From assembly GCA_030446715.1 (NCBI GenBank), contig JAUJMU010000016.1, positions 57,501 through 100,895 on the forward strand: DNA of 43,395 bases, in the 5' to 3' direction. Positions 9,394 through 18,614 of the stretch are shown piece by piece; the first letter of the stretch is position 1, and the number at the start of each line of letters is the position of its first letter. The translations under genes and the position numbers were made by a program. The notes under the pieces are model-generated. The model was not told the origin of the DNA, did not search any database, and saw only the letters and a program-made list of their open reading frames with translations. Source of the stretch: Cytophagales bacterium. Its GTDB lineage: Bacteria; Bacteroidota; Bacteroidia; Cytophagales; 172606-1.

Positions 9394-10941
9394 TCAAGGC
9401 ATGACAGGTTGGGCAGAAAAAACTTCGCAGGAAGCATTGGCTGCCTGCACCCGTCGTTCTACGTTGAAACGTTCCACCGCACCCGGTTCCAGGCGTCCGT
9501 GTTCGTAGAGGTAAGTGCCCAGCACCTGTCCGCTTTCGCTCAGAAACCTGATTCTGAGCGTCACGTTGTCAAACGCCGTTTCGGCGGAGGTGTTGGAAAG
9601 TACGATCTTCAGCGCAAAGCGACTCCTGCTGTCCCCGGCGTCAGATGGCGGCACCGCCTCATACTCCAGCCCTATCTGAGAAAATTGACTGCCTGTAGAA
9701 GCACTATCGGCGGCCGGCTCCTGCACAGCCGTGGTTTCGGGCAAGGCCGGGGCGGGGGCGGTTTCCGCTTCCGTGGGCACTTTCTCCGGCGGAATGGCTG
9801 GCTGGGTTTCGGCCGTCTTTGGGGCTTCTTCTGCATGGTCCCTCACTTTGGCATCAGTGTCCGGGTGTGCAGCCCTCCGGGTCTGGTTTTCGTTGCCGTC
9901 TGGCAGCAAGGCGAGAATGATCAGTACAATGCTCAGCAGAATGGCCGCCGTCAGCAGGACACTGGTCCAGCGCGTCCGGCGTGGTTTGGCAGGCACCGGG
10001 GGCGGGTTCTCCGGAGCGGCCATAATGGTCTCGTGCCAGGCAGCAGACGATTGGGCAGGCGTACGGGGAGGTACAACCAACGGCGGCTCGCCGGGTAGGG
10101 AAGGAGCGGGTTGCACCGACCTGTCCAACAGTGCGTCCCGGAAGCGATGGCAGTCAGGAAAACGGCTGGCCGGGTCTTTGGCGGTGGCGCGGTCTACCAG
10201 CTTCTGCATGCGTTCCGTAACCAGCGGGTACAGCTCCCGCATCTCCGGCAGCGGTTCCTGCAGAATGCGCTGGTAAACGGCGTATTCCGTCATGCTGGCT
10301 TCGTCGTACGGTGGCCTTCCCGTCAGAATCTGAAACAGCGTAACGCCGAGGGAATATATGTCGCTGCGCTTGTCCAGCACCTCGCCCCGCACCTGTTCCG
10401 GACTCATGTACAACACGGTGCCCATGCGGGTGCCTTCTTTGGTTAAGGCACCAATGCCCTGCCCGGTCGTCAGTTTGGCGATGCCAAAATCCAGAATCTT
10501 GGCGTTGCCGTCTTCCGTCACCATGAGGTTAGACGGCTTGATGTCGCGGTGGATCACGCCGCGGTCGTGGGCGTAGGCGACGGCATCCAGCAGTTTTGCA
10601 AACAGCGGCACTGCCCTGGCCTCGGGCACCGGACCGGTCACTGAGCCGATGTATTCGTCCAGCGTTTTGCCTTCCACGTATTCCATGAACAGGTACAGGG
10701 CGTCTTCTTCCTCTGAGTAGTCGTACAGGTTTACGATGTTGGGGTGTTGCAGGTGAGAGAGGGCCGCTGCCTCATTGCGGAACCGTTCGCGCACCACCGG
10801 ATTCCGGGCAAGGGCCGGATGAATGACCTTGATGGCAATCCGGCGGCCCAGCTGGGTATGGATGGCGAGGTATACGCTTCCCATGCCCCCCGTTCCGAGC
10901 AGCGATTGGATTCGGTAATTGCGTATCTGCTGGCCAAGCAT
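9394..10941 (-). CDS. Hanks-type serine/threonine protein kinase, membrane anchored
   Basis: A 515-residue protein. The kinase domain spans about 9-265 and has every key motif: the glycine loop GTGGMGSV, the lysine in RIAIKVIHP, the catalytic HRDIKPSN, DFGIAK, and SPEQVRGE before the substrate-binding lobe. A proline-rich linker leads to one membrane helix (about 322-345). After a second Ala/Pro/Thr-rich linker comes a C-terminal beta-rich domain (about 425-510) on the far side of the membrane. That domain carries no PASTA repeat, so its ligand cannot be guessed. The gene is followed upstream, on the same strand, by a PP2C phosphatase and an FHA protein, which form a reversible Ser/Thr phosphorylation module. 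Heptad repeats abut its start codon. Confidence 0.92.
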   Translation of the reverse strand: MLGQQIRNYRIQSLLGTGGMGSVYLAIHTQLGRRIAIKVIHPALARNPVVRERFRNEAAALSHLQHPNIVNLYDYSEEEDALYLFMEYVEGKTLDEYIGSVTGPVPEARAVPLFAKLLDAVAYAHDRGVIHRDIKPSNLMVTEDGNAKILDFGIAKLTTGQGIGALTKEGTRMGTVLYMSPEQVRGEVLDKRSDIYSLGVTLFQILTGRPPYDEASMTEYAVYQRILQEPLPEMRELYPLVTERMQKLVDRATAKDPASRFPDCHRFRDALLDRSVQPAPSLPGEPPLVVPPRTPAQSSAAWHETIMAAPENPPPVPAKPRRTRWTSVLLTAAILLSIVLIILALLPDGNENQTRRAAHPDTDAKVRDHAEEAPKTAETQPAIPPEKVPTEAETAPAPALPETTAVQEPAADSASTGSQFSQIGLEYEAVPPSDAGDSRSRFALKIVLSNTSAETAFDNVTLRIRFLSESGQVLGTYLYEHGRLEPGAVERFNVERRVQAANASCEVFSAQPVMP

Positions 10942-10947
10942 GGAAAT

Positions 10948-10982
10948 AATTACGGATGACTAATTACGAATTACAAATGGGG
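10948..10982. repeat. Heptad tract A, upstream of the kinase start
   Basis: Consecutive seven-base units AATTACG, GATGACT, AATTACG, AATTACA, AATGGGG, starting seven bases before the kinase ATG. Confidence 0.75.
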
Positions 10983-11015
10983 ATGGGCACTATCAGCTGC
11001 GTTCCTGACGGATTT

Positions 11016-11057
11016 GTCTCCGGTCTCCCGTCTCCTGTCTCAAATCTCCTTTCTACT
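11016..11057. repeat. Heptad tract B, running into the phosphatase stop codon
   Basis: Six consecutive units GTCTCCG, GTCTCCC, GTCTCCT, GTCTCAA, ATCTCCT, TTCTACT. The last one contains the stop codon of the minus-strand PP2C gene (11053-11055). Confidence 0.85.
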
Positions 11058-12660
11058 GCCGTTCCGCAAAGGGAATGATCAGGTTTTCGCCGCGGCTGGC
11101 GCGGTCGGTGGTTTTGGCATTGGCAGTCATGATCATTTCCTTGGGCACGTTGTACTTACGGGAAACCACGTCCAGAATGTCACCCGGACCCACGGTGTGA
11201 ATGGCTTTTACCCGTACATTCAGTTTGGTGACATCCGCCTTTATATCCGTTCCTTCATTTTTGATGGCTGGATTCAGCTTTTTTAAGGTTTCGCGGTTCA
11301 GGTTGTAGCGACGGGCTACCGAACTGAATGTTTCGCCGGCCCTTACGGTATGGCTGATCACCTGACCGCTGCCCGTGGCGGGATTGGAAACCGGCCGGCT
11401 GGCCGGAGGGGTGGCAGTGGCTGGTGCCGTGCGTGCAGCTGGTGCCGGCCGCGCAGCCGCTGGCTGGTCCCGGGGAGCAGGGGCAGGTTTAGCAGGAGTG
11501 GAAGATGATGCCGGGGCCGGCTCTTCCCCGGCCGGAACCGGGGTCGTATCCGGCGTGGAAGAGACCAGCTCGGAGTTTTCTACTGGTTCGTCGGAAAGGT
11601 AACGCAGACCGCTCAGGAACATCACGAAAACAACTAGTGCAAGCACGCAAAGAATAATCAGCGCAACGTCAGGGCCCTTCTTTTTCCGGGCAGTTGCCGT
11701 CGTACTTTTAACCGTTCTTTTTGCCATTTCGGGGTCAATAACTGGTTCAGGTTCTCGTCTTATGACCGGTTCCGGCCGGGGGCGGGGTGGTTCTGGTCTG
11801 GGGTTAGTGGGCCGGTTTACCGGTGGCAGTGGTGCCGGGGCCGGCGTATCTGCGGCTGGTAGGGGAGGCAGCACGACCGGCGTCCCGGTCGCCGCAGCGG
11901 TTACTGCTTTTGGCTGGAAGCCAATCAGCTGGACGGTAATGTTATCGTAGCCACCTGCCTCGTTGGCCCGTTCTACCAGCCGCATTGCCCGGTGCTGCAC
12001 CGGGCCGGCAGCCATCAGTTCCTGCCGGATGGCTTCGTCGGAGAGCAGACCCGTAAGGCCGTCGGTGCAGAGCAGCAGCACATCGCCATAACCGGGCATC
12101 AGTGGCTGGCCTGATACATCCACCAATACCTCCCGCGAGGTGCCTAAGGCACGGGTCAGTTCGTTGCGGCGCGGGTGGTTCTCGGCTTCTGCTTCCGTGA
12201 GCAGACCCTGATCCATCAGTTGCTGCACGTAAGAATGGTCCCTGGTGAGCCGCTCCAGCCGTCCGCCGGAGAGGCGGTAAATGCGGCTGTCGCCGACGTG
12301 GGCAAACCAGACTTCGCCCTTGCGGTACAGCACCAGCACGCAGGTGGTACCCATGCCCCGCAACTGCGGGTTCTGCTGCGCGGCGGCGTGGATCTGTCCG
12401 TTGGCGAAGAGCAAGGCCTGCCGGAGGGCTTCGTGGGGAAATTCGTAATAGCGGTGCTCAAAAAAGGTCCGGATACTGTCTGTGGCGGTCTGGGCGGCGG
12501 TGGCACCGCCCAGATGCCCGCCCATGCCGTCACACACCACAAATACGTGTCCGTTCAGGGTGTTGAAATAACCAAGATAATCTTCATTTGCCTGTCGTAC
12601 GCGGCCTATGTCGGTATGATTGCCGAATTCGAAGTGCAGAGGATTGGTCTGATCCGCCAT
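11053..12660 (-). CDS. PP2C-family protein phosphatase with a membrane helix and two LysM domains
   Basis: A 535-residue protein. Residues about 10-245 form a PP2C/Stp catalytic domain with the metal-binding and core motifs RQANED, VCDGMGGHLGG, AHVGDSRIYRL, LCTDGLTGLL and GGYDNITV. A long Pro/Arg-rich linker follows, then one membrane helix (about 330-352). An Ala/Pro-rich stretch leads to two LysM domains (about 437-483, HTVRAGETFSSVARRYNL; about 485-533, HTVGPGDILDVVSRKYNV). The phosphatase would thus be cytoplasmic and the LysM pair periplasmic, where LysM normally binds peptidoglycan. In most bacteria the wall-sensing domains sit on the kinase, so the arrangement here is reversed. It most likely counteracts the neighbouring kinase. 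Confidence 0.92.
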   Translation of the reverse strand: MADQTNPLHFEFGNHTDIGRVRQANEDYLGYFNTLNGHVFVVCDGMGGHLGGATAAQTATDSIRTFFEHRYYEFPHEALRQALLFANGQIHAAAQQNPQLRGMGTTCVLVLYRKGEVWFAHVGDSRIYRLSGGRLERLTRDHSYVQQLMDQGLLTEAEAENHPRRNELTRALGTSREVLVDVSGQPLMPGYGDVLLLCTDGLTGLLSDEAIRQELMAAGPVQHRAMRLVERANEAGGYDNITVQLIGFQPKAVTAAATGTPVVLPPLPAADTPAPAPLPPVNRPTNPRPEPPRPRPEPVIRREPEPVIDPEMAKRTVKSTTATARKKKGPDVALIILCVLALVVFVMFLSGLRYLSDEPVENSELVSSTPDTTPVPAGEEPAPASSSTPAKPAPAPRDQPAAARPAPAARTAPATATPPASRPVSNPATGSGQVISHTVRAGETFSSVARRYNLNRETLKKLNPAIKNEGTDIKADVTKLNVRVKAIHTVGPGDILDVVSRKYNVPKEMIMTANAKTTDRASRGENLIIPFAERQ

Positions 12661-12676
12661 ACGGGAATTTTTGGCC

Positions 12677-12684
12677 CAAAATTA
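12677..12684 (-). promoter_or_regulatory. Candidate -7 box of the PP2C gene
   Basis: On the minus strand TAATTTTG fits the Bacteroidota TAnnTTTG box and lies 17 bases before the start codon. No clear -33 TTG is seen. Confidence 0.4.
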
Positions 12685-12716
12685 GGCGATAAAAATAAGA
12701 CAGGGACCTTTACTTA

Positions 12717-12765
12717 AATTGATAATTGAAAATTGACACCAACAACCAATACCCCTTTAACTGGC
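12717..12765. repeat. Heptad tract C, running into the FHA-gene stop codon
   Basis: Seven consecutive units AATTGAT, AATTGAA, AATTGAC, ACCAACA, ACCAATA, CCCCTTT, AACTGGC. The last base is the first base of the complement of the FHA stop codon (12765-12767). The units drift away from the consensus towards the gene. Confidence 0.75.
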
Positions 12766-13370
12766 TATAGGGCCGAACGGAACCGGAAAACGGTACTGCC
12801 CAGCCGGATGGTATCGCCGTCCTGCAAAATACCTTCGTCGCGGATTTCGTCGTTGATAAAAGTGCCGTTGGTCGAAAGCTCATCCTTGAACCGGAAACCA
12901 TCCATCCGGTAAAGAATGGTCAGGTGGTGACCCGATACGGCAGGGTCGCCGGGCACGACAATGTCACAGCCCGGATCGGCCCCGATCAGGTTGCGGCCTT
13001 CGTACAACCGGAAATCTACACCGGCCGGACTGATGGTGTACGACACCAGCCAGCCCGCCAGTTTGCGTCCGGCCGTGCCGGCAGCCGGTTGGTCAGGATT
13101 AAAAATCTGCGTCCGGGCCAGAGAGGGCGGTGGTACAGCAGCAGTTTTCAAGGGAGCCTTTTCCGCGGGAACCGGTACAACCGGCGGGGCTTCGGTACCC
13201 GGATCTTCTATTTTGGTGTGGTCCCAGTCCGACTGACTGAGGTCACCCATAACTGTGTTTTTCAGCTGGTTGGGCCCCGCCTGGTAAACCCCCGGCCGCG
13301 GACAGTATGGGCATTCCTCCTGACTTTCAGGGTAATAATGGCCGTTCTTGCAAAGTTTAAATTCGCTCAT
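12765..13370 (-). CDS. FHA-domain protein with an N-terminal zinc-ribbon-like motif
   Basis: A 201-residue protein with no signal peptide. The N-terminus has a cysteine/histidine cluster (LCKNGHYYPE, then ECPYCPRPG) like a small zinc ribbon. A linker of about 80 residues, rich in proline and containing several threonines, follows. The C-terminal domain (about 117-198) is an FHA fold with the expected motifs: GRNLIGADPGCD, VSGHHLTI and STNGTFIND. FHA domains bind phosphothreonine peptides. Its position beside a Hanks kinase and a PP2C phosphatase suggests it is a substrate or reader in that pathway. The threonine-bearing linker is the obvious place for phosphorylation, which is an inference. 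Confidence 0.88.
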   Translation of the reverse strand: MSEFKLCKNGHYYPESQEECPYCPRPGVYQAGPNQLKNTVMGDLSQSDWDHTKIEDPGTEAPPVVPVPAEKAPLKTAAVPPPSLARTQIFNPDQPAAGTAGRKLAGWLVSYTISPAGVDFRLYEGRNLIGADPGCDIVVPGDPAVSGHHLTILYRMDGFRFKDELSTNGTFINDEIRDEGILQDGDTIRLGSTVFRFRSAL

Positions 13371-13601: not shown

Positions 13602-14627
13602 CTATTTACGGGTGGCGTAGGTCTGGCTATGGCCCTTTGCGGGGATGCTCACGGTGTAGTTCTTCCCGTCGGGAGCTACTGACATTTTGATGTAGTTGCC
13701 ATCACAATCAGCCTCAAGGTTGGCAATGTAGGCATCGGCGGTGTTGTACTGACTGTCTTCCCGCAGGTTTTTGTGCGCCTGATAAACCGCCTGAATGGAT
13801 GGCGTGTTTTTAAGCGTAGTCGTGGTCTGCGGGCCGCAGCCCTTGGTGGTGCCGTTGCCCATTACGGCTACGGTCGGCCGAAGGGCCTGCACCAGCAGCG
13901 GATGGTTGCTCTGGTCGAGGCCGTGGTGGTTCACCTGAAACACATCTACCTCGCCCAGCCGGTTGACCGGACAAACGAGGGTTTTCTCCACATTCCAGGT
14001 AAGGTCGGCACCGTTGAAGAAGCGGAACGGACCATATTGCAGCAGCATGACGGTGCTATTGGCGTTGTCGGACCGGTCAAGCGGCTTGTCGGGCACCTGG
14101 TCGCAGCCGGCGGTGGAGGGGTCTTTGCCGCTGGCGTCAATAAACTGCTGGTCGGCACCCACAAACTGAAACTTCAGCGGCTGGGCTCCCCTGGCTTTCT
14201 TCAGTTTGATTTCGGCACCCCGGCCGATCATCAGCCGTTTTGCCTCAATACCCCTGTACTCCTGAATGCGTTCGGCAAATTTCGGATCTTCCTGAAGCAC
14301 CTGCGGAATTCCTTTGTCGTAGATAGTCCCGATGGGAATTTTCCGGGAGAGTTCAGCGGCCCCGCCGTAGTGGTCAATGTGGAAGTGCGTGGTCACCAGA
14401 TAGTCAATTCTTTTCAGCCCGGCAGCCTGGGCAGCTTTGTAAATACGATCCGCGTCGCGGCCGCCGGGATTACCGGAATCAATCAGGATCGATTCACCGG
14501 CCGGTGTTACGATCAGCGTAGCCGCGCCACCTTCCACATCCACCCAGTAAATGTCCAGGGTTCTGGTCTGGGCGTGTGCGAAGAGGGGAAAAAGCAGGAG
14601 GAGCAGGGTAAAAAGTGGTTTGTGCAT
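13602..14627 (-). CDS. Secreted metallo-beta-lactamase-fold hydrolase (ComEC/Rec2-like subgroup)
   Basis: A 341-residue protein. The start at 14627 is preferred over the longer frame because it gives a typical signal peptide (MHKPLFTLLLLLFPLFAHAQ). The MBL fold shows the metal motif THFHIDHYGG at about 80-90, an early aspartate in ILIDSGNPGG, a later aspartate in FFNGADLTW, and histidines in FQVNHHGLDQSNHP. This is the pattern of the competence-ComEC-like MBL group, here soluble, without ComEC membrane helices, and exported. The natural substrate cannot be told. A signal-borne enzyme of this type is periplasmic or extracellular. Confidence 0.85.
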   Translation of the reverse strand: MHKPLFTLLLLLFPLFAHAQTRTLDIYWVDVEGGAATLIVTPAGESILIDSGNPGGRDADRIYKAAQAAGLKRIDYLVTTHFHIDHYGGAAELSRKIPIGTIYDKGIPQVLQEDPKFAERIQEYRGIEAKRLMIGRGAEIKLKKARGAQPLKFQFVGADQQFIDASGKDPSTAGCDQVPDKPLDRSDNANSTVMLLQYGPFRFFNGADLTWNVEKTLVCPVNRLGEVDVFQVNHHGLDQSNHPLLVQALRPTVAVMGNGTTKGCGPQTTTTLKNTPSIQAVYQAHKNLREDSQYNTADAYIANLEADCDGNYIKMSVAPDGKNYTVSIPAKGHSQTYATRK

Positions 14628-14666
14628 GGGAAAGTGATTTGCCGGCAGGCGTTTGCCGGAAAGGTA

Positions 14667-14674
14667 CAAACTTA
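14667..14674 (-). promoter_or_regulatory. Candidate -7 box of the MBL hydrolase gene
   Basis: TAAGTTTG on the minus strand matches TAnnTTTG about 40 bases before the chosen start, which supports that start. Confidence 0.45.
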
Positions 14675-14945
14675 AATATAATGTTATATTTCCCTGCCTC
14701 CGCGAATCTTCACTGAACCAACCGGCGGTCCGGTCTCCGCAGGGTATCGCTGCTGATCACCCACAGGTCCGGAAATCCGGAGTGGCAGCAGCAAAAATAA
14801 AAAGGCTGACAGTCTACTCATACCGGCACTGATCATTTATGACCTTGTCTGCCTCCTGGTTTCCTGATCTTTTTCTGTCACCCCATCCGCCCGGTAATTC
14901 CGGGGTTTTGGTCGTGGAAAGGGAAATCTTTTCCAGATCAATGGG

Positions 14946-15542
14946 TCAGATCAGAATAAAACGAAAACTATATATTTCCGGAAGAAGTCCCGGGTTACTC
15001 ACAAAGAACCGGTTATACTCCATTCTTCTCGCTTCAACCAATCCGGATTCATTCAAATGGAGAATTTCAATCGTTACTTCGGCTCGTTCCTGATCGGCAA
15101 TGACTGCCAAAGGGTTAGGATGAATGGTGTGGTCTGTGTAGTTATACACAAAGTACCGGAAAAAATCATAGTCACTGGCATCCGGCCTCAGCAATCCTGA
15201 GTGGTATTCTTCCATCTTCGCCTTTTGGCAATGACCACAGGAAACATATAAATTTTCCCACTTGCAAACCTCTCCGTAAAATTCCGGATTGGATTTAGGC
15301 CGAAAATGGTCAATTGTTTTATCTGCCAGACGGAGTGGGTAACCATCGCAGTAAGAGCAATGGTGCTGTGTCATTGCCAGCAGATCGGGAAGCAACCACT
15401 GGTTCAGAGGTTTCCCATTTACTTCCGGCCACTGAAAAGAAAAGCCGGGATTGCGTACCCGGTTGCTGCTGTACCTGTTTCCCCATTCCTCCCATTTTTC
15501 TGACAGAATCGCCGGACAGACTGTGCGTGTAAAACGATTCAT
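14946..15542 (-). CDS. ptuB: HNH endonuclease, PtuB-like component of a Septu-type defence system
   Basis: A 198-residue protein of the HNH family found next to OLD-like ATPases. The zinc and nuclease motifs are CSYCDGYPL, DHFRPKSNPEFYGEVC (the central DH of the HNH fold) and SCGHCQKAK, so two CxxC pairs bracket the active-site histidine. The start ATG (15542) lies one base after the TGA of the upstream ATPase gene, so the two are translationally coupled. In Septu systems PtuB is the nuclease and PtuA the ATPase that assembles with it, and together they protect against phages. No reverse transcriptase is nearby, so it is not a retron-linked version. The DNA is visibly more AT-rich than its neighbours. 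Confidence 0.8.
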   Translation of the reverse strand: MNRFTRTVCPAILSEKWEEWGNRYSSNRVRNPGFSFQWPEVNGKPLNQWLLPDLLAMTQHHCSYCDGYPLRLADKTIDHFRPKSNPEFYGEVCKWENLYVSCGHCQKAKMEEYHSGLLRPDASDYDFFRYFVYNYTDHTIHPNPLAVIADQERAEVTIEILHLNESGLVEARRMEYNRFFVSNPGLLPEIYSFRFILI

Positions 15543-15543
15543 G

Positions 15544-16806
15544 TCAGATGGTAAATTCTTCCTGAGTAATGCGTGATAGTTGTCTTAATTCAGATCCGAT
15601 AATAGTAGTAAGTTCAATGCTTTGCTCCGCGAGATACCGGGCAAGTTGGAGAAAAGCTGCTTTATCAATGGGTTGCTTTTGCAAAATTCTGGTCTTCATC
15701 TGATTAAACTTGTCCAGATCGGCTTCTGTTTCCACACCAAATCGTTTTTCAATATCAAACACCTCCCTTAGAATCAACTGGTAGCTTTCTCCGTCTTCAG
15801 ACAGTTTTGACGGCTGCGCATGGCTGTTGCCGTTCTCATCCAGCACCAGTTTATGCACCCAGGCTCCATCTACGGAGCCGACCACGAAAGGTGAATGGGT
15901 GGAAACAAAAATCTGGGCGTTTTTAAAAAGCTTTTGAACAGCGGGCAGAATTTTACGTTGCCACGCCGGGTGGAGGTGTACGTCAATTTCGTCGAGGAAT
16001 AAAATAAAGTTCCGGTCCAGTACCTCTACATCCGTAGCCCACTTGATCCGGTCCATTCGCATGAGCAAATCGGCTATCCAGCTGATGATGGATTTCAAAC
16101 CGTCCGGCAATACATCGAAGGACAGGATTTTGTCCTCTACTTTTATTACAACGTTAAGCGGATCGGTTTCTAAAACGAACTCAATTTTCTGATTGATAAT
16201 CTCTGCAATGGCATTTTCAATCCTTGTAACTGATTTCCGGTACCGTTCCGCCTTTCCCTGCCCGTTTTTAATCAACTCAAGGGCCTCCTTGGTTTTGTTA
16301 TTGGCCACCCATTGCATGAATAGGCCCGGATTGACGGATTGTTTAAAATCAAGGGAGTTTTCAAACGGGTTAACAGTCAACTCCTGAATCGGACCGATCT
16401 GGGTACTGGCAATATTCCGGTAGCCTGAGTAGGCAAAGAAGGCGAATTCAAAAGTGGTTATCTGATAGTTATTAATTTTATGGATGTAGGATGGGTAGAG
16501 CGGGGACTTCCGGTCAGTAGTTAAGGATAAATAACCCGTATTGCTGTAGCTGTATTTTAATTCAGCTTCATTATCCAGCGACAAACGAACCAGACTTCTT
16601 TCATCTGAAAAACGAAATCTGTTTTTCAAATCGGCGTGTACTTCCCGGATACTCGCTAATGCGTACAACACCGTGCTCTTGCCTGTTCCATTTTCTCCGG
16701 TAAAAATGTGAATCTCAGCTTTGTCCGGAAGTTTCTTCTCCGGAAACCCAATGGTTTCATCTTCAAAGACGCCGATGTTCTGGAAGTGGATTTTAGTAAT
16801 TCTCAT
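15544..16806 (-). CDS. ptuA: AAA/OLD-like ATPase, PtuA-like component of a Septu-type defence system
   Basis: A 420-residue ABC/SMC-type ATPase. The Walker A motif is TGENGTGKSTV at about 37-47. The signature-like segment is LPDGLKSIISW. The Walker B is FILFLDEIDVHLHP and a switch histidine follows in VSTHSPFVVGS. A helical middle region (about 165-225) separates the lobes. There is no C-terminal TOPRIM domain, so it is not a classical OLD nuclease. The nuclease function is supplied by the downstream HNH gene, which starts one base after this stop codon. That two-gene order and domain pairing is the Septu layout. Direct family assignment needs a profile search; related ATPase-HNH pairs also occur in other defence systems. 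Confidence 0.8.
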   Translation of the reverse strand: MRITKIHFQNIGVFEDETIGFPEKKLPDKAEIHIFTGENGTGKSTVLYALASIREVHADLKNRFRFSDERSLVRLSLDNEAELKYSYSNTGYLSLTTDRKSPLYPSYIHKINNYQITTFEFAFFAYSGYRNIASTQIGPIQELTVNPFENSLDFKQSVNPGLFMQWVANNKTKEALELIKNGQGKAERYRKSVTRIENAIAEIINQKIEFVLETDPLNVVIKVEDKILSFDVLPDGLKSIISWIADLLMRMDRIKWATDVEVLDRNFILFLDEIDVHLHPAWQRKILPAVQKLFKNAQIFVSTHSPFVVGSVDGAWVHKLVLDENGNSHAQPSKLSEDGESYQLILREVFDIEKRFGVETEADLDKFNQMKTRILQKQPIDKAAFLQLARYLAEQSIELTTIIGSELRQLSRITQEEFTI

Positions 16807-16922
16807 AGGCGCTCATTATTACAATTGGCCCGAAAGGCAATTAACCAATGCCAAAGAGCAGTCTTATTACTGCGCCAAAGATCAGGAAAATACTGATTCT
16901 TATTCTGCGCTTTTTGTTTTAT

Positions 16923-16997
16923 GTCACTCCCGCAGGGAGTCTTGTTCAGACAGGAGAAGATTTTGCTTACATCAACAAGATTCCCTGCGGGAGTGAC
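16923..16997. repeat. REP-like element: 24-bp inverted repeat whose arms are themselves palindromic
   Basis: GTCACTCCCGCAGGGA plus GTCTTGTT (16923-16946) pairs with AACAAGAT plus TCCCTGCGGGAGTGAC (16974-16997) at 23 of 24 positions, with the remaining pair a G-T. Each arm carries an inner palindrome (ACTCCC-GCA-GGGAGT). It sits between ptuA and rbsA. Confidence 0.75.
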
Positions 16998-17043
16998 AGC
17001 TTACAGTGGTAAAACCGGAATAGTCACGGACTTTTTTGCACCT

Positions 17044-17118
17044 ATCACTTATCACTTGCCGGGCAGGCACTCAGGCCTGCCCCTACTTACTACTAATCAC
17101 TTACCACTCCCCGTTCAC
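17044..17118. repeat. Heptad tract D with an embedded hairpin, running into the rbsA-like stop codon
   Basis: Two units ATCACTT (17044-17057) are followed by a perfect hairpin GGGCAGGC/GCCTGCCC (17061-17082). Then come TACTTAC, TACTAAT, CACTTAC, CACTCCC and CGTTCAC (17084-17118), the last one containing the stop codon at 17115-17117. The hairpin appears to have been inserted into an older heptad tract. Confidence 0.75.
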
Positions 17119-18614
17119 TCCACTACCCCGGACGTGGCAAACCGCATGATGCTGTGGTCGGTCCATTCCCGGATCGGTTTCACCGGCGACAGTTCGCCCC
17201 GGTACATGACCGCCAGCGAGTCGCAGATGCCCAGCAGTTCGGGCAGGTAAGAGCTGATCACCACCACCGCTTTGCCCTGCGCGGCGAGTTGGCCGATCAG
17301 GCGGTAGATTTCGGCCTTGCTGCCTACGTCAATGCCGCGGGTGGGTTCGTCGAGGAAAAATACATCGCCGTTCTGGTGTAGCAGCCGGGCAATGGCAATC
17401 TTCTGCTGGTTGCCGCCCGAAAGGGCGGAGGCCGGCTGGCGTACGTCCCGGCACCTGATGCTCAGTTCCTGCCGCCACCGGTCGGCCTGCGCCTGTTCCT
17501 TTCCCAGATCAACCCAGCCACCCCGGCTGAGCCGGCCCAGAGCCGAGAGGGTAATGTTGGCGTAAATGGGCAGGTTCACGGCCAGCCCTTCTTCCTTGCG
17601 GTTTTCGCTGAGCAGATCCAGACCGTAATCAAGGGCGGTGCGGGGCGTCAGGTATCCGGCCCGGAGCTGCGGCTGGCCGGCAATGGTCACGCGGCCGTTT
17701 CTGACTTTGTCCAGCCCGAACAGGCAACGGATCGTTTCGGTGCGTCCTGCCCCCACCAGACCTGATATTCCCAGTATCTCCCCCCGGTGCAGGGTAAAAG
17801 AGGTACGGCGCGGCAGGACGTCCCCTTGTAAATCATGCACTTCCATTACCGGGATGCCGATGGTGTGAGGCGTGTAGGGATACATATCGTCAAGGGAGCG
17901 GCCCACCATCTGCGCAATCAGATGGGCAACAGTGGCTTCGGCCATGTTGCCCTTGCCTACGGTTTCGCCGTCCCGCAGTACCGTGTACCGGTCGCATATT
18001 TCCTGCACTTCTTCCAGAAAATGACTGATGTAGATCACGGCAATCCCTTTGGCCTTGAGCCGGCTGATTACTCCAAACAGGGCCCGGCTGTCGGCGGCAG
18101 TGAGAGAGGAGGTAGGCTCATCCATGATTACCACCTCGGCATCCAGCACGAGGGCGCGGGCAATTTCTACCAGTTGCTGGCGGGCAATGCTCAGGTCACT
18201 TACCCGGGTGGCGGGGTCCAGGGTTTCCTGCCCCAGCAGCGCAAGGGCTTCTTTTACTTTGCCTTTCTGGCTCAGGTTAAATCCGAATCGTGACTTTTCG
18301 AGGCCAAGGGTAATGTTTTCCTCTACGGAAAGGTGCGGCACCAGCGTCAGTTCCTGATAAATCATGGCAATGCCCGACAGCCGGCCTGCGGCGGGGGACT
18401 GCGGCGCGTACGGTTTGCCCCGGAAGGTAATCGTACCGGAGTCGGGCTTTTCGGCGCCGCTCAGGATTTTCATCAGCGTACTCTTGCCGGCTCCGTTTTC
18501 ACCGATCAGGGCGTGTACCTCGCCGGGGGCCACTTCCAGATTTACGCCTTTCAGCGCCTTTACCGGCCCGAATGACTTAGTGATGTGCTCCAGTTGCAGA
18601 AGGGTAGCGGTCAT
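17115..18614 (-). CDS. Sugar ABC transporter ATP-binding protein (RbsA/MglA type, two ATPase cassettes)
   Basis: A 499-residue protein of the tandem-cassette CUT2 type, close to the family's usual length. The first cassette has Walker A GENGAGKST, signature LSIARQQLVEIARAL and Walker B VVIMDEPTSSL. The second has the degenerate P-loop GLVGAGRTE usual for this family, then LSGGNQQKIAIARLL and FFLDEPTRGIDVGSK. These ATPases drive ribose, galactose or similar monosaccharide uptake with an RbsC permease and a periplasmic binding protein. Neither partner lies within the window on either side, so the cassette is either an orphan or works with a distant permease. The neighbours (ptuA-B and a peroxiredoxin) have no transport link. 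Confidence 0.9.
   Translation of the reverse strand: MTATLLQLEHITKSFGPVKALKGVNLEVAPGEVHALIGENGAGKSTLMKILSGAEKPDSGTITFRGKPYAPQSPAAGRLSGIAMIYQELTLVPHLSVEENITLGLEKSRFGFNLSQKGKVKEALALLGQETLDPATRVSDLSIARQQLVEIARALVLDAEVVIMDEPTSSLTAADSRALFGVISRLKAKGIAVIYISHFLEEVQEICDRYTVLRDGETVGKGNMAEATVAHLIAQMVGRSLDDMYPYTPHTIGIPVMEVHDLQGDVLPRRTSFTLHRGEILGISGLVGAGRTETIRCLFGLDKVRNGRVTIAGQPQLRAGYLTPRTALDYGLDLLSENRKEEGLAVNLPIYANITLSALGRLSRGGWVDLGKEQAQADRWRQELSIRCRDVRQPASALSGGNQQKIAIARLLHQNGDVFFLDEPTRGIDVGSKAEIYRLIGQLAAQGKAVVVISSYLPELLGICDSLAVMYRGELSPVKPIREWTDHSIMRFATSGVVE

What the first reader, a model, noticed from the sequence alone, without database searches (positions are those of the whole stretch)
14946..16806. 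Septu-like two-gene defence system (PtuA ATPase and PtuB HNH nuclease)
A TOPRIM-less OLD-type ATPase and a double-CxxC HNH nuclease are coupled by a one-base gap (TGA C ATG). The pair is visibly AT-richer than its neighbours, and a REP-like repeat flanks the ATPase side, both consistent with acquisition by transfer. The genes sit alone, between a housekeeping-like hydrolase and an ABC ATPase, not in an obvious defence island.
Basis: partly seen in the sequence, partly recalled or inferred. Interest (0 to 1): 0.62.

Follow-up and report, generated by a model that had tools for sequence, protein, structure and literature searches.

The report
Septu phage-defence pair with mosaic ATPase
Two coupled bacterial genes form an ordinary Septu-type antiviral system, but comparison with relatives suggests that its ATPase is built from swappable parts, one hypervariable and one that travels with the nuclease, which would show where the system may sense viruses.

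Summary
In detail: at 14946-16806 (minus strand) lie ptuA (420 aa) and ptuB (198 aa), one base apart. PADLOC's Septu models match both almost end to end (531 and 230 bits). The catalytic residues are intact, and the leading fold matches are Septu or retron PtuA and PtuB. No reverse transcriptase is on the contig and no Rfam family matches. It is a Septu type I pair and, as such, ordinary. The AT-richness is real, but 21 of 22 related loci show it too. The REP-like repeat is not part of the system: a congener has the same ABC ATPase-ptuA-ptuB order without it. A second Septu of another clade lies elsewhere in the genome. The unexpected result comes from relatives. PtuA residues from about 50 to 120 (to 228 in some pairs), just after Walker A, are hypervariable between otherwise near-identical alleles, with sharp DNA edges in 11 of 15 pairs compared. 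The last ~105 residues of PtuA track PtuB; the rest of PtuA does not once they are controlled for. This held in the first clade, in 10 further loci and in a second clade of 18. I infer a mosaic PtuA: candidate sensor segment, fixed core, and a C-terminal part exchanged with PtuB. Function is untested.

The parts
15544..16806 (-). ptuA, ABC/SMC-like ATPase of a Septu type I system (420 aa)
   Evidence: PADLOC PDLC00281 PtuA, 531.5 bits, residues 1-418 on profile 4-446/448; Pfam AAA_21 and AAA_15; fold matches to PtuA
16672..16698 (-). Walker A of PtuA (residues 37-45, GENGTGKST; K43)
   Evidence: Sequence; G37, N39, G40, G42, K43, T45 invariant in 21 of 21 aligned PtuA
16357..16644 (-). Hypervariable segment of PtuA (residues 55-150), candidate recognition segment; DNA similarity to the congener's locus is lost over 16456-16660
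   Evidence: 29% identity to the same-genus homologue against 83% (1-54) and 85% (231-315); blastn gap
15988..16008 (-). Walker B region of PtuA (residues 267-273)
   Evidence: D272, E273 invariant in 21 of 21
15547..15861 (-). C-terminal part of PtuA (residues 316-420), tracks PtuB in evolution; probable PtuB dock
   Evidence: Mantel r 0.755, 0.816 in 10 new loci, 0.929 in a second clade; the structural alignment reaches residue 415-417 in 16 of 17 PtuB-containing PDB entries listed and in 0 of 4 PtuB-free ones, which stop at 335-367
15543..15543 (-). One-base gap between the ptuA stop and the ptuB start (TGA C ATG)
   Evidence: Sequence
14946..15542 (-). ptuB, HNH nuclease of the Septu system (198 aa)
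   Evidence: PADLOC PDLC00351 PtuB, 230.2 bits, residues 1-197 on profile 1-193/195; TIGR02646 49.1 bits, just under its cut-off of 52.15
15216..15362 (-). HNH motif with two CxxC pairs (residues 61-109)
   Evidence: H61, C62, C65, H79, N97, C102, C105 invariant in 22 of 22, K109 in at least 90%
14860..14872 (.). Left arm of a 13-base perfect inverted repeat in the gap downstream of ptuB; possible cassette boundary or paired regulatory site
   Evidence: pair I3; 0 of 500 first-order Markov copies of the two gaps have one as long
16877..16889 (.). Right arm of the same 13-base inverted repeat, in the gap upstream of ptuA
16922..16998 (.). Dispersed inverted repeat between the ABC ATPase gene and ptuA; not part of the system
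   Evidence: other or partial copies in the genome; absent from the congener's syntenic gap

Best explanation
This is a two-gene Septu type I anti-phage system. PtuA, an ABC/SMC-like ATPase, assembles into an oligomer that holds the HNH nuclease PtuB in check. A change caused by phage infection releases or activates PtuB, which then cuts nucleic acid (phage DNA or a host tRNA) and stops phage growth. Family membership and intact catalytic residues are shown here; oligomerisation, restraint, trigger and target are inferred from characterised relatives. From the comparison of relatives I further infer that PtuA is modular: a fixed ATPase core, a hypervariable segment just after Walker A that may contact whatever signals infection, and a C-terminal helical part that docks PtuB and is exchanged together with it.
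For: Near-full-length PADLOC PtuA and PtuB matches. Profile searches of the PDB: the 12 sequences at E<=1e-10 for PtuA are named PtuA or retron ATPase, or 'AAA family ATPase' in entries that also hold a PtuB-type chain; PtuB-type chains head the PtuB list. Fold search: the 50 rows listed are all retron or Septu entries; VIA Z 28.0 to 8eea_D (391 residues, rmsd 7.2) and 8ee4_C (344, rmsd 4.0). Catalytic residues invariant. Residues of the same kind in E. coli Septu EcB88 (PtuA K43, D316; PtuB H75, N91) are essential for defence (PMC13096335, passages read). No RVT_1 match on the window's contig. Modularity; the AlphaFold model places the hypervariable segment in a strand-rich lobe and residues 339-414 in four helices.
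Against: No defence assay is known to me for this clade. NCBIfam's PtuA and PtuB equivalog cut-offs, which are set for retron Ec78, are not reached (136 of 500, 51 of 150 bits). The PtuB model is weak around the HNH motif (pLDDT under 50 at 66-78) and its TM-scores to PtuB are only about 0.33-0.42. The signature-motif region reads LPDGLKS; E. coli Septu PtuA has LSDGLR and Ec83 has LSQGEK there, so ATP handling may differ. Physical linkage alone could make the PtuA C-terminus track PtuB.
Confidence: 0.85

Rival explanations
1. The pair is the effector half of a retron (Septu type II / retron I-A) whose reverse transcriptase and ncRNA lie elsewhere or were lost.
For: By sequence PtuB is nearer to retron I-A PtuB than to E. 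coli Septu PtuB in the PDB (2.3e-15 against 2.2e-6). The genome does hold one RVT_1 match.
Against: That match is on another contig, C25, and Rfam finds nothing in the window. RVT_1 was also sought in 20 homologue genomes plus G002: 15 of 21 have a match. In 16 of the 21 the PtuA contig is known and no RVT_1 match lies on it; G486 and G489 have none at all; G480, G485 and G488 could not be placed.
Confidence: 0.04
2. A non-defence two-gene unit (DNA repair or housekeeping SMC-like ATPase plus nuclease).
For: ABC/SMC-like ATPases are common in repair; VIA also aligns SMC and Rad50 heads (Z 17.3-19.0). The pair sits beside ordinary genes.
Against: PtuA/PtuB profiles; PtuA entries score Z 21.6-29.0, above the SMC heads; patchy distribution, this genome included: 3 of 98 relatives at E<=1e-30, 5 of 395 genomes of the phylum at E<=1e-90; relatives in four phyla; hypervariability within PtuA.
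Confidence: 0.05
3. The mosaic pattern is mechanical: recombination starts in the two conserved DNA stretches, and whatever lies beyond them moves by linkage; the segment after Walker A is merely a tolerant surface, not a sensor.
For: The breakpoints fall at the edges of the most conserved stretches. Linkage predicts that the C-terminus and ptuB move together. The lobe of ABC/SMC ATPases may be generally variable; no non-defence ATPase was run as a control. No donor lobe from a distant relative was found.
Against: When alleles are not exchanged the segment is kept (84% in L016/L083, 85% in L108/L112), while of 12 pairs with a near-identical core 10 have it at 33% or less, and 10 of 12 at 23% or less in the second clade. 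This suggests replacement and not steady drift. The length varies from 80 to 124 residues.
Confidence: 0.4

Closest known systems
Septu type I (PtuA-PtuB), E. coli ATCC 25922 (PDB 8ee4, 8eea, 8sux; strain recalled for these entries) and EcB88
   Same: Gene order, ATPase plus HNH nuclease, lengths, catalytic residues, no reverse transcriptase; PtuA profile spans chain 1-448 of 465
   Different: About 20% identity over the fold; PtuB only weakly matched (2.2e-6); another clade (PDLC00281/PDLC00351); host unnamed, probably Bacteroidota by my guess
Retron I-A / Septu type II (Ec78 = Eco7, Ec83) PtuAB
   Same: Same two effector families; best sequence match in the PDB is Ec83 PtuA (2.1e-22)
   Different: No reverse transcriptase or retron RNA found; PtuA shorter (420 against 542-550 aa), aligning from their residue about 61-64
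PARIS AriA (8v45, 8ux9)
   Same: ABC/SMC-like ATPase of a defence system (VIA Z 17.7-19.3)
   Different: Partner AriB is a TOPRIM nuclease (abstract start of PMC12409363 in the listing), not HNH; lower scores
OLD nucleases / Gabija GajA
   Same: ABC-type ATPase domain (recalled)
   Different: No TOPRIM domain in PtuA

Membership tests
Septu type I | PtuA-family ATPase | tested here: met
   PDLC00281, 531.5 bits, near full length; PDB profile and fold matches
Septu type I | PtuB-family HNH nuclease next to PtuA in one operon | tested here: met
   PDLC00351, 230.2 bits; one-base gap; adjacent in 24 of 24 loci
Septu type I | Intact ATPase and HNH catalytic residues | tested here: met
   K43, D272, E273, H304 and H79, N97, four Cys invariant
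Septu type I | PtuB has the HNH fold | tested here: inconclusive
   Foldseek's best 12 rows are all PtuB chains, but TM about 0.33-0.42 and the motif region is modelled with low confidence
Septu type I | No reverse transcriptase (separates type I from type II) | tested here: met
   No RVT_1 match on the window's contig; no Rfam match in the window
Septu type I | Protects against phage | not testable with these tools
   No assay
Retron I-A (Septu type II) | Reverse transcriptase preceding ptuA (PMC8565338, passages) | tested here: not met
   Upstream gene is an ABC transporter ATPase; the only RVT_1 match is on contig C25
Retron Ec78 PtuA/PtuB equivalogs (NCBIfam NF041760, NF041761) | Curated score cut-off | tested here: not met
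   136 of 500 bits and 51 of 150 bits
OLD family | C-terminal TOPRIM domain (recalled) | tested here: not met
   No TOPRIM match in Pfam at E<=0.01

The most novel reading that the evidence does not exclude
PtuA is a combinatorial immune receptor. A hypervariable cassette inserted between Walker A and the next conserved block recognises the phage trigger and is replaced by recombination at a recurrent breakpoint (residues 49-62, most often 49-56), while a second cassette, the PtuA C-terminus plus PtuB, is swapped to change the effector. Septu loci thus diversify sensor and effector independently around a constant ATPase.
Probability: 0.4. Interest if true: 0.75.

Novelty: new member of a known kind. 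Interest (0 to 1): 0.5.

Why it matters
The pair itself adds a well-formed Septu type I member from an unnamed, probably Bacteroidota, genome. In the passages of four papers that I read I saw no account of how a Septu without a retron senses phage. The mosaic pattern names a segment of about 70-180 residues to test as the sensor and a C-terminal part to test as the nuclease dock, and natural near-identical alleles that differ mainly there (L107/L111, L089/L017, L033/L021) are ready-made reagents.

Tried and rejected
Recent acquisition by a mobile element: no plasmid match at 1e-30; three weak phage-record matches at 1e-10, none covering 80%. An empty site could not be shown: congener G001 has the downstream genes but no PtuA at E<=1e-30, and its contig begins in or just before the hydrolase gene (match from base 18). 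REP-like repeat as part of the system: rejected. A boundary cannot be ruled out: a 13-base perfect inverted repeat lies in the two gaps around the pair. It was picked after the fact from six pairs, is absent from G002's gaps, and occurs in no other stretch among 121 loci except those that hold this place. A conserved third gene: none. Of 257 ORFs from 25 loci only PtuA and PtuB recur in all 25; the next cluster is in 7. Downstream genes differ by clade: thymidylate synthase, class II aminoacyl-tRNA synthetase, AAA_30/UvrD_C_2 helicase; the last matches PADLOC candidate PDC-M16A. Defence island: of 20 window proteins scanned (of 28 other ORFs of 150 aa or more), only the kinase at 9394-10941 (PD-T4-6, mad6 and other kinase models) and a partial match of the ABC ATPase to mad3 scored at 1e-15.

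Against the mosaic reading: Mantel permutations ignore relatedness, so the counts are not probabilities. The N-terminal part also correlates with PtuB (r 0.365, 0.468 over 30 rows, 0.448) until the C-terminus is controlled for. Of 8 pairs passing another filter (residues 1-54 at 75% or more and 231-315 at 85% or more), 5 had the segment at 35% or less. At DNA level 4 of 15 pairs run through the segment without a break (L032/L024, L016/L083, L107/L110, L108/L112); the pairs were chosen by me as similar, and a blastn gap can also mean fast change. No clear donor lobes were found (that script stopped with an error after the lobe table and the second-clade list, and its remaining part was run). 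No non-defence ATPase family was run as a control. VIA lists one PtuB-containing entry (9l7p) whose best chain stops at residue 334, against the pattern. Literature: full-text searches for a hypervariable, mosaic or swapped PtuA listed nothing on it; only open-licence papers are held and lists are capped, so this is not proof of absence.

Full report
What is there. The window (contig C9 of a 6.4 Mb genome in 25 contigs) carries two minus-strand genes: 15544-16806 (420 aa) and 14946-15542 (198 aa), with a one-base gap TGA C ATG. The order on the minus strand is ABC transporter ATPase (17115-18614), ptuA, ptuB, metallo-beta-lactamase-fold protein (13602-14669).

What it is. PADLOC gives PtuA PDLC00281 at 531.5 bits (4.9e-160) and PtuB PDLC00351 at 230.2 bits (5.4e-69), both near full length; the next PtuA and PtuB models score 155 and 75 bits, so this is a distinct clade within Septu. 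NCBIfam's retron Ec78 equivalogs match below cut-off. PDB sequence searches give retron Ec83/Ec78 and Septu PtuA and PtuB first. AlphaFold models: PtuA mean pLDDT 84.9, PtuB 76.9 with low confidence at residues 66-78. Foldseek's 50 listed rows for PtuA are all Septu or retron entries; VIA-align gives Z 28.0 to 8eea_D (rmsd 7.2, 391 aligned) and 8ee4_C (rmsd 4.0, 344 aligned), while AriA and SMC/Rad50 heads reach 17-19. For PtuB the best 12 rows are PtuB chains, though with TM about 0.33-0.42. Walker A and B, H-loop, HNH and zinc cysteines are invariant across 21 PtuA and 22 PtuB sequences.

Relatives and spread. A genome scan gave 21 loci; with L012, L013 and the second locus of this genome (L057) all 24 have ptuB next to ptuA, gaps -17 to +65. 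One (L030) is frameshifted; one PtuB (L013) was extended through a stop by my script, while its plain ORF of 198 aa is open. Hosts of the named loci are mostly Bacteroidota, plus a Desulfobacterales, a Thiovulum and a Pyrinomonadaceae MAG. Distribution is patchy, this genome counted: 3 of 98 relatives at E<=1e-30, one of them distant; 5 of 395 genomes of the phylum at E<=1e-90. In the family of an Emticicia genome (G499) 21 of 222 have it at E<=1e-80. No reverse transcriptase match is on contig C9, and no Rfam family matches the window.

Was it acquired? GC of both genes is in the lowest 2% of 139 other ORFs of this genome. But 21 of 22 related loci are also AT-richer than their own flanks, mean difference -0.054, so composition is a trait of the pair. 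Congener G002 has the same ABC ATPase-ptuA-ptuB order (82%, 65%, 59% identity) with different genes outside, so the block predates that split or moved as one. In two genomes of genus g3 of the same family the ABC ATPase orthologue stands without PtuA in the stretch read, next to a 338-340-aa gene; the orthologue of that gene in this genome is on another contig (75%). The inverted repeat 16922-16998 is missing from G002's gap (119 bases against 308); a similar element and half copies occur elsewhere in this genome. A 13-base perfect inverted repeat flanks the pair (14860-14872, 16877-16889). None of 500 first-order Markov copies of the two gaps has one as long, and G002's gaps have no match of 8 or more; I have no explanation that I trust.

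Mosaic PtuA. In the trees of 20 pairs PtuA and PtuB disagree in places. Sliding identity shows chimeras: L033 PtuA is 91-100% identical to L021 over residues 151-315 but 27% from 316 on, where it resembles L031, as does its PtuB (69% to L031, 31% to L021). Distances of PtuA 316-420 correlate with PtuB at r 0.755, those of 1-315 at 0.365; the partial correlations are 0.709 and -0.011 (20 rows). Of 14 blocks of 105 residues from the N-terminal part none exceeded 0.327. Ten loci not used before gave 0.816 and 0.351, partial 0.786 and 0.011; all 30 rows together 0.757 and 0.468, partial 0.678 and 0.105. A second Septu clade, found with the other PtuA of this genome (18 of 19 loci used), gave 0.929 and 0.448, partial 0.910 and 0.019.

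The segment after Walker A. In both clades mean pairwise identity falls to 0.10-0.22 per ten residues from about residue 51 to 120 (61 to 140 in the second clade), between conserved stretches. Of the 12 first-clade pairs whose core (231-315) is printed at 0.95 or more, 10 have this segment at 0.33 or less; of the 12 second-clade pairs with the most similar core, 10 have 0.23 or less. The exceptions are whole-allele relatives (0.84, 0.85) and partial ones (0.43, 0.56). Of 15 pairs compared at DNA level, 11 lose similarity at residue 49-62 and regain it later; 4 run through. Examples: L107/L111 86% up to residue 56, nothing detectable to 220, then 90% through ptuB; L089/L017 83%, edge at residue 49, resuming at 229 at 90%; L033/L021 edges at residues 53, 151 and 345, with homologous flanks of 81% and 88% on either side; window against G002 80% to residue 49, nothing to about 117, then 69%. 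So the window's own pair shows the pattern too (29% in residues 55-150, against 83% before and 85% in the core). L107 also shows the two parts parting ways: its segment and middle part are nearest to L110 (0.56, 0.81) while its C-terminus and PtuB are nearest to L111 (0.96, 0.96), whose segment is 0.09 alike (12 pairs printed).

Reading. PtuB-containing PDB entries align to my model as far as residue 415-417 in 16 of 17 cases listed, and PtuB-free ones (8ee4, 8sux, 9e91, 9n6c) stop at 335-367 (contents judged from titles and). This fits a C-terminal dock for PtuB that becomes ordered on binding. I infer that the C-terminus and PtuB form one exchangeable unit and that the segment after Walker A is the likeliest sensor surface. 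Linkage and tolerance are live alternatives.

Mechanism in known relatives. E. coli EcB88 Septu cleaves tRNA-Tyr and needs PtuA K43/D316 and PtuB H75/N91 (PMC13096335, passages); [quoted passage not shown] a review gives a 6:2 PtuA-PtuB complex for Septu and release of PtuAB in Ec83 (PMC12948488, passages); PADLOC's paper defines type II by the reverse transcriptase (PMC8565338, passages). Which target this clade uses is unknown.

Verdict. The finding is confirmed and, as a system, ordinary. The added value is the modular pattern, which is testable.

Noticed in passing
L057 4416-6779 (G000:C13:52000-64000): A second Septu pair in the same genome, of another clade (PDLC00304 469 bits, PDLC00339 277 bits), beside a 126-aa ORF matching the ends of type I restriction specificity subunits.
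   Followed up: partly
window 14860-14872 and 16877-16889: A 13-base perfect inverted repeat in the two gaps around the ptuAB pair; 0 of 500 Markov copies of the gaps match it, and it is not in the congener's gaps.
   Followed up: partly
window 9394-13370: A kinase (matches PD-T4-6), a 535-aa protein (PP2C-like and LysM-like by eye) and an FHA-like protein (by eye) in a row; similar genes in congener G001. Probably a signalling module.
   Followed up: no
window 17115-18614: ABC importer-type ATPase without an obvious permease next to it; in genus g3 it lies beside a 338-340-aa gene (permease by guess, not scanned) whose orthologue here is on contig C18. The ATPase-ptuA-ptuB order recurs in G002 while outer genes differ.
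   Followed up: partly
window 16922-16998; G000:C21:180199-180273; G000:C18:308704-308781: A dispersed element of about 75 bases with inverted arms TCAYTCCCGCAGGGA (the C18 arms match only in part).
   Followed up: partly
L021, L031, L033 and L016-L018: Septu alleles with the same downstream gene in related species: a class II aminoacyl-tRNA synthetase (L021, L031, L033) or a thymidylate synthase (L016-L018) (one member of each cluster was scanned).
   Followed up: partly
PtuA residues 233-239: The signature-motif region of this clade has D235, G236 and S239 invariant in 21 of 21 (mostly LPDGLKS), where E. coli Septu PtuA has LSDGLR and retron Ec83 PtuA LSQGEK.
   Followed up: no
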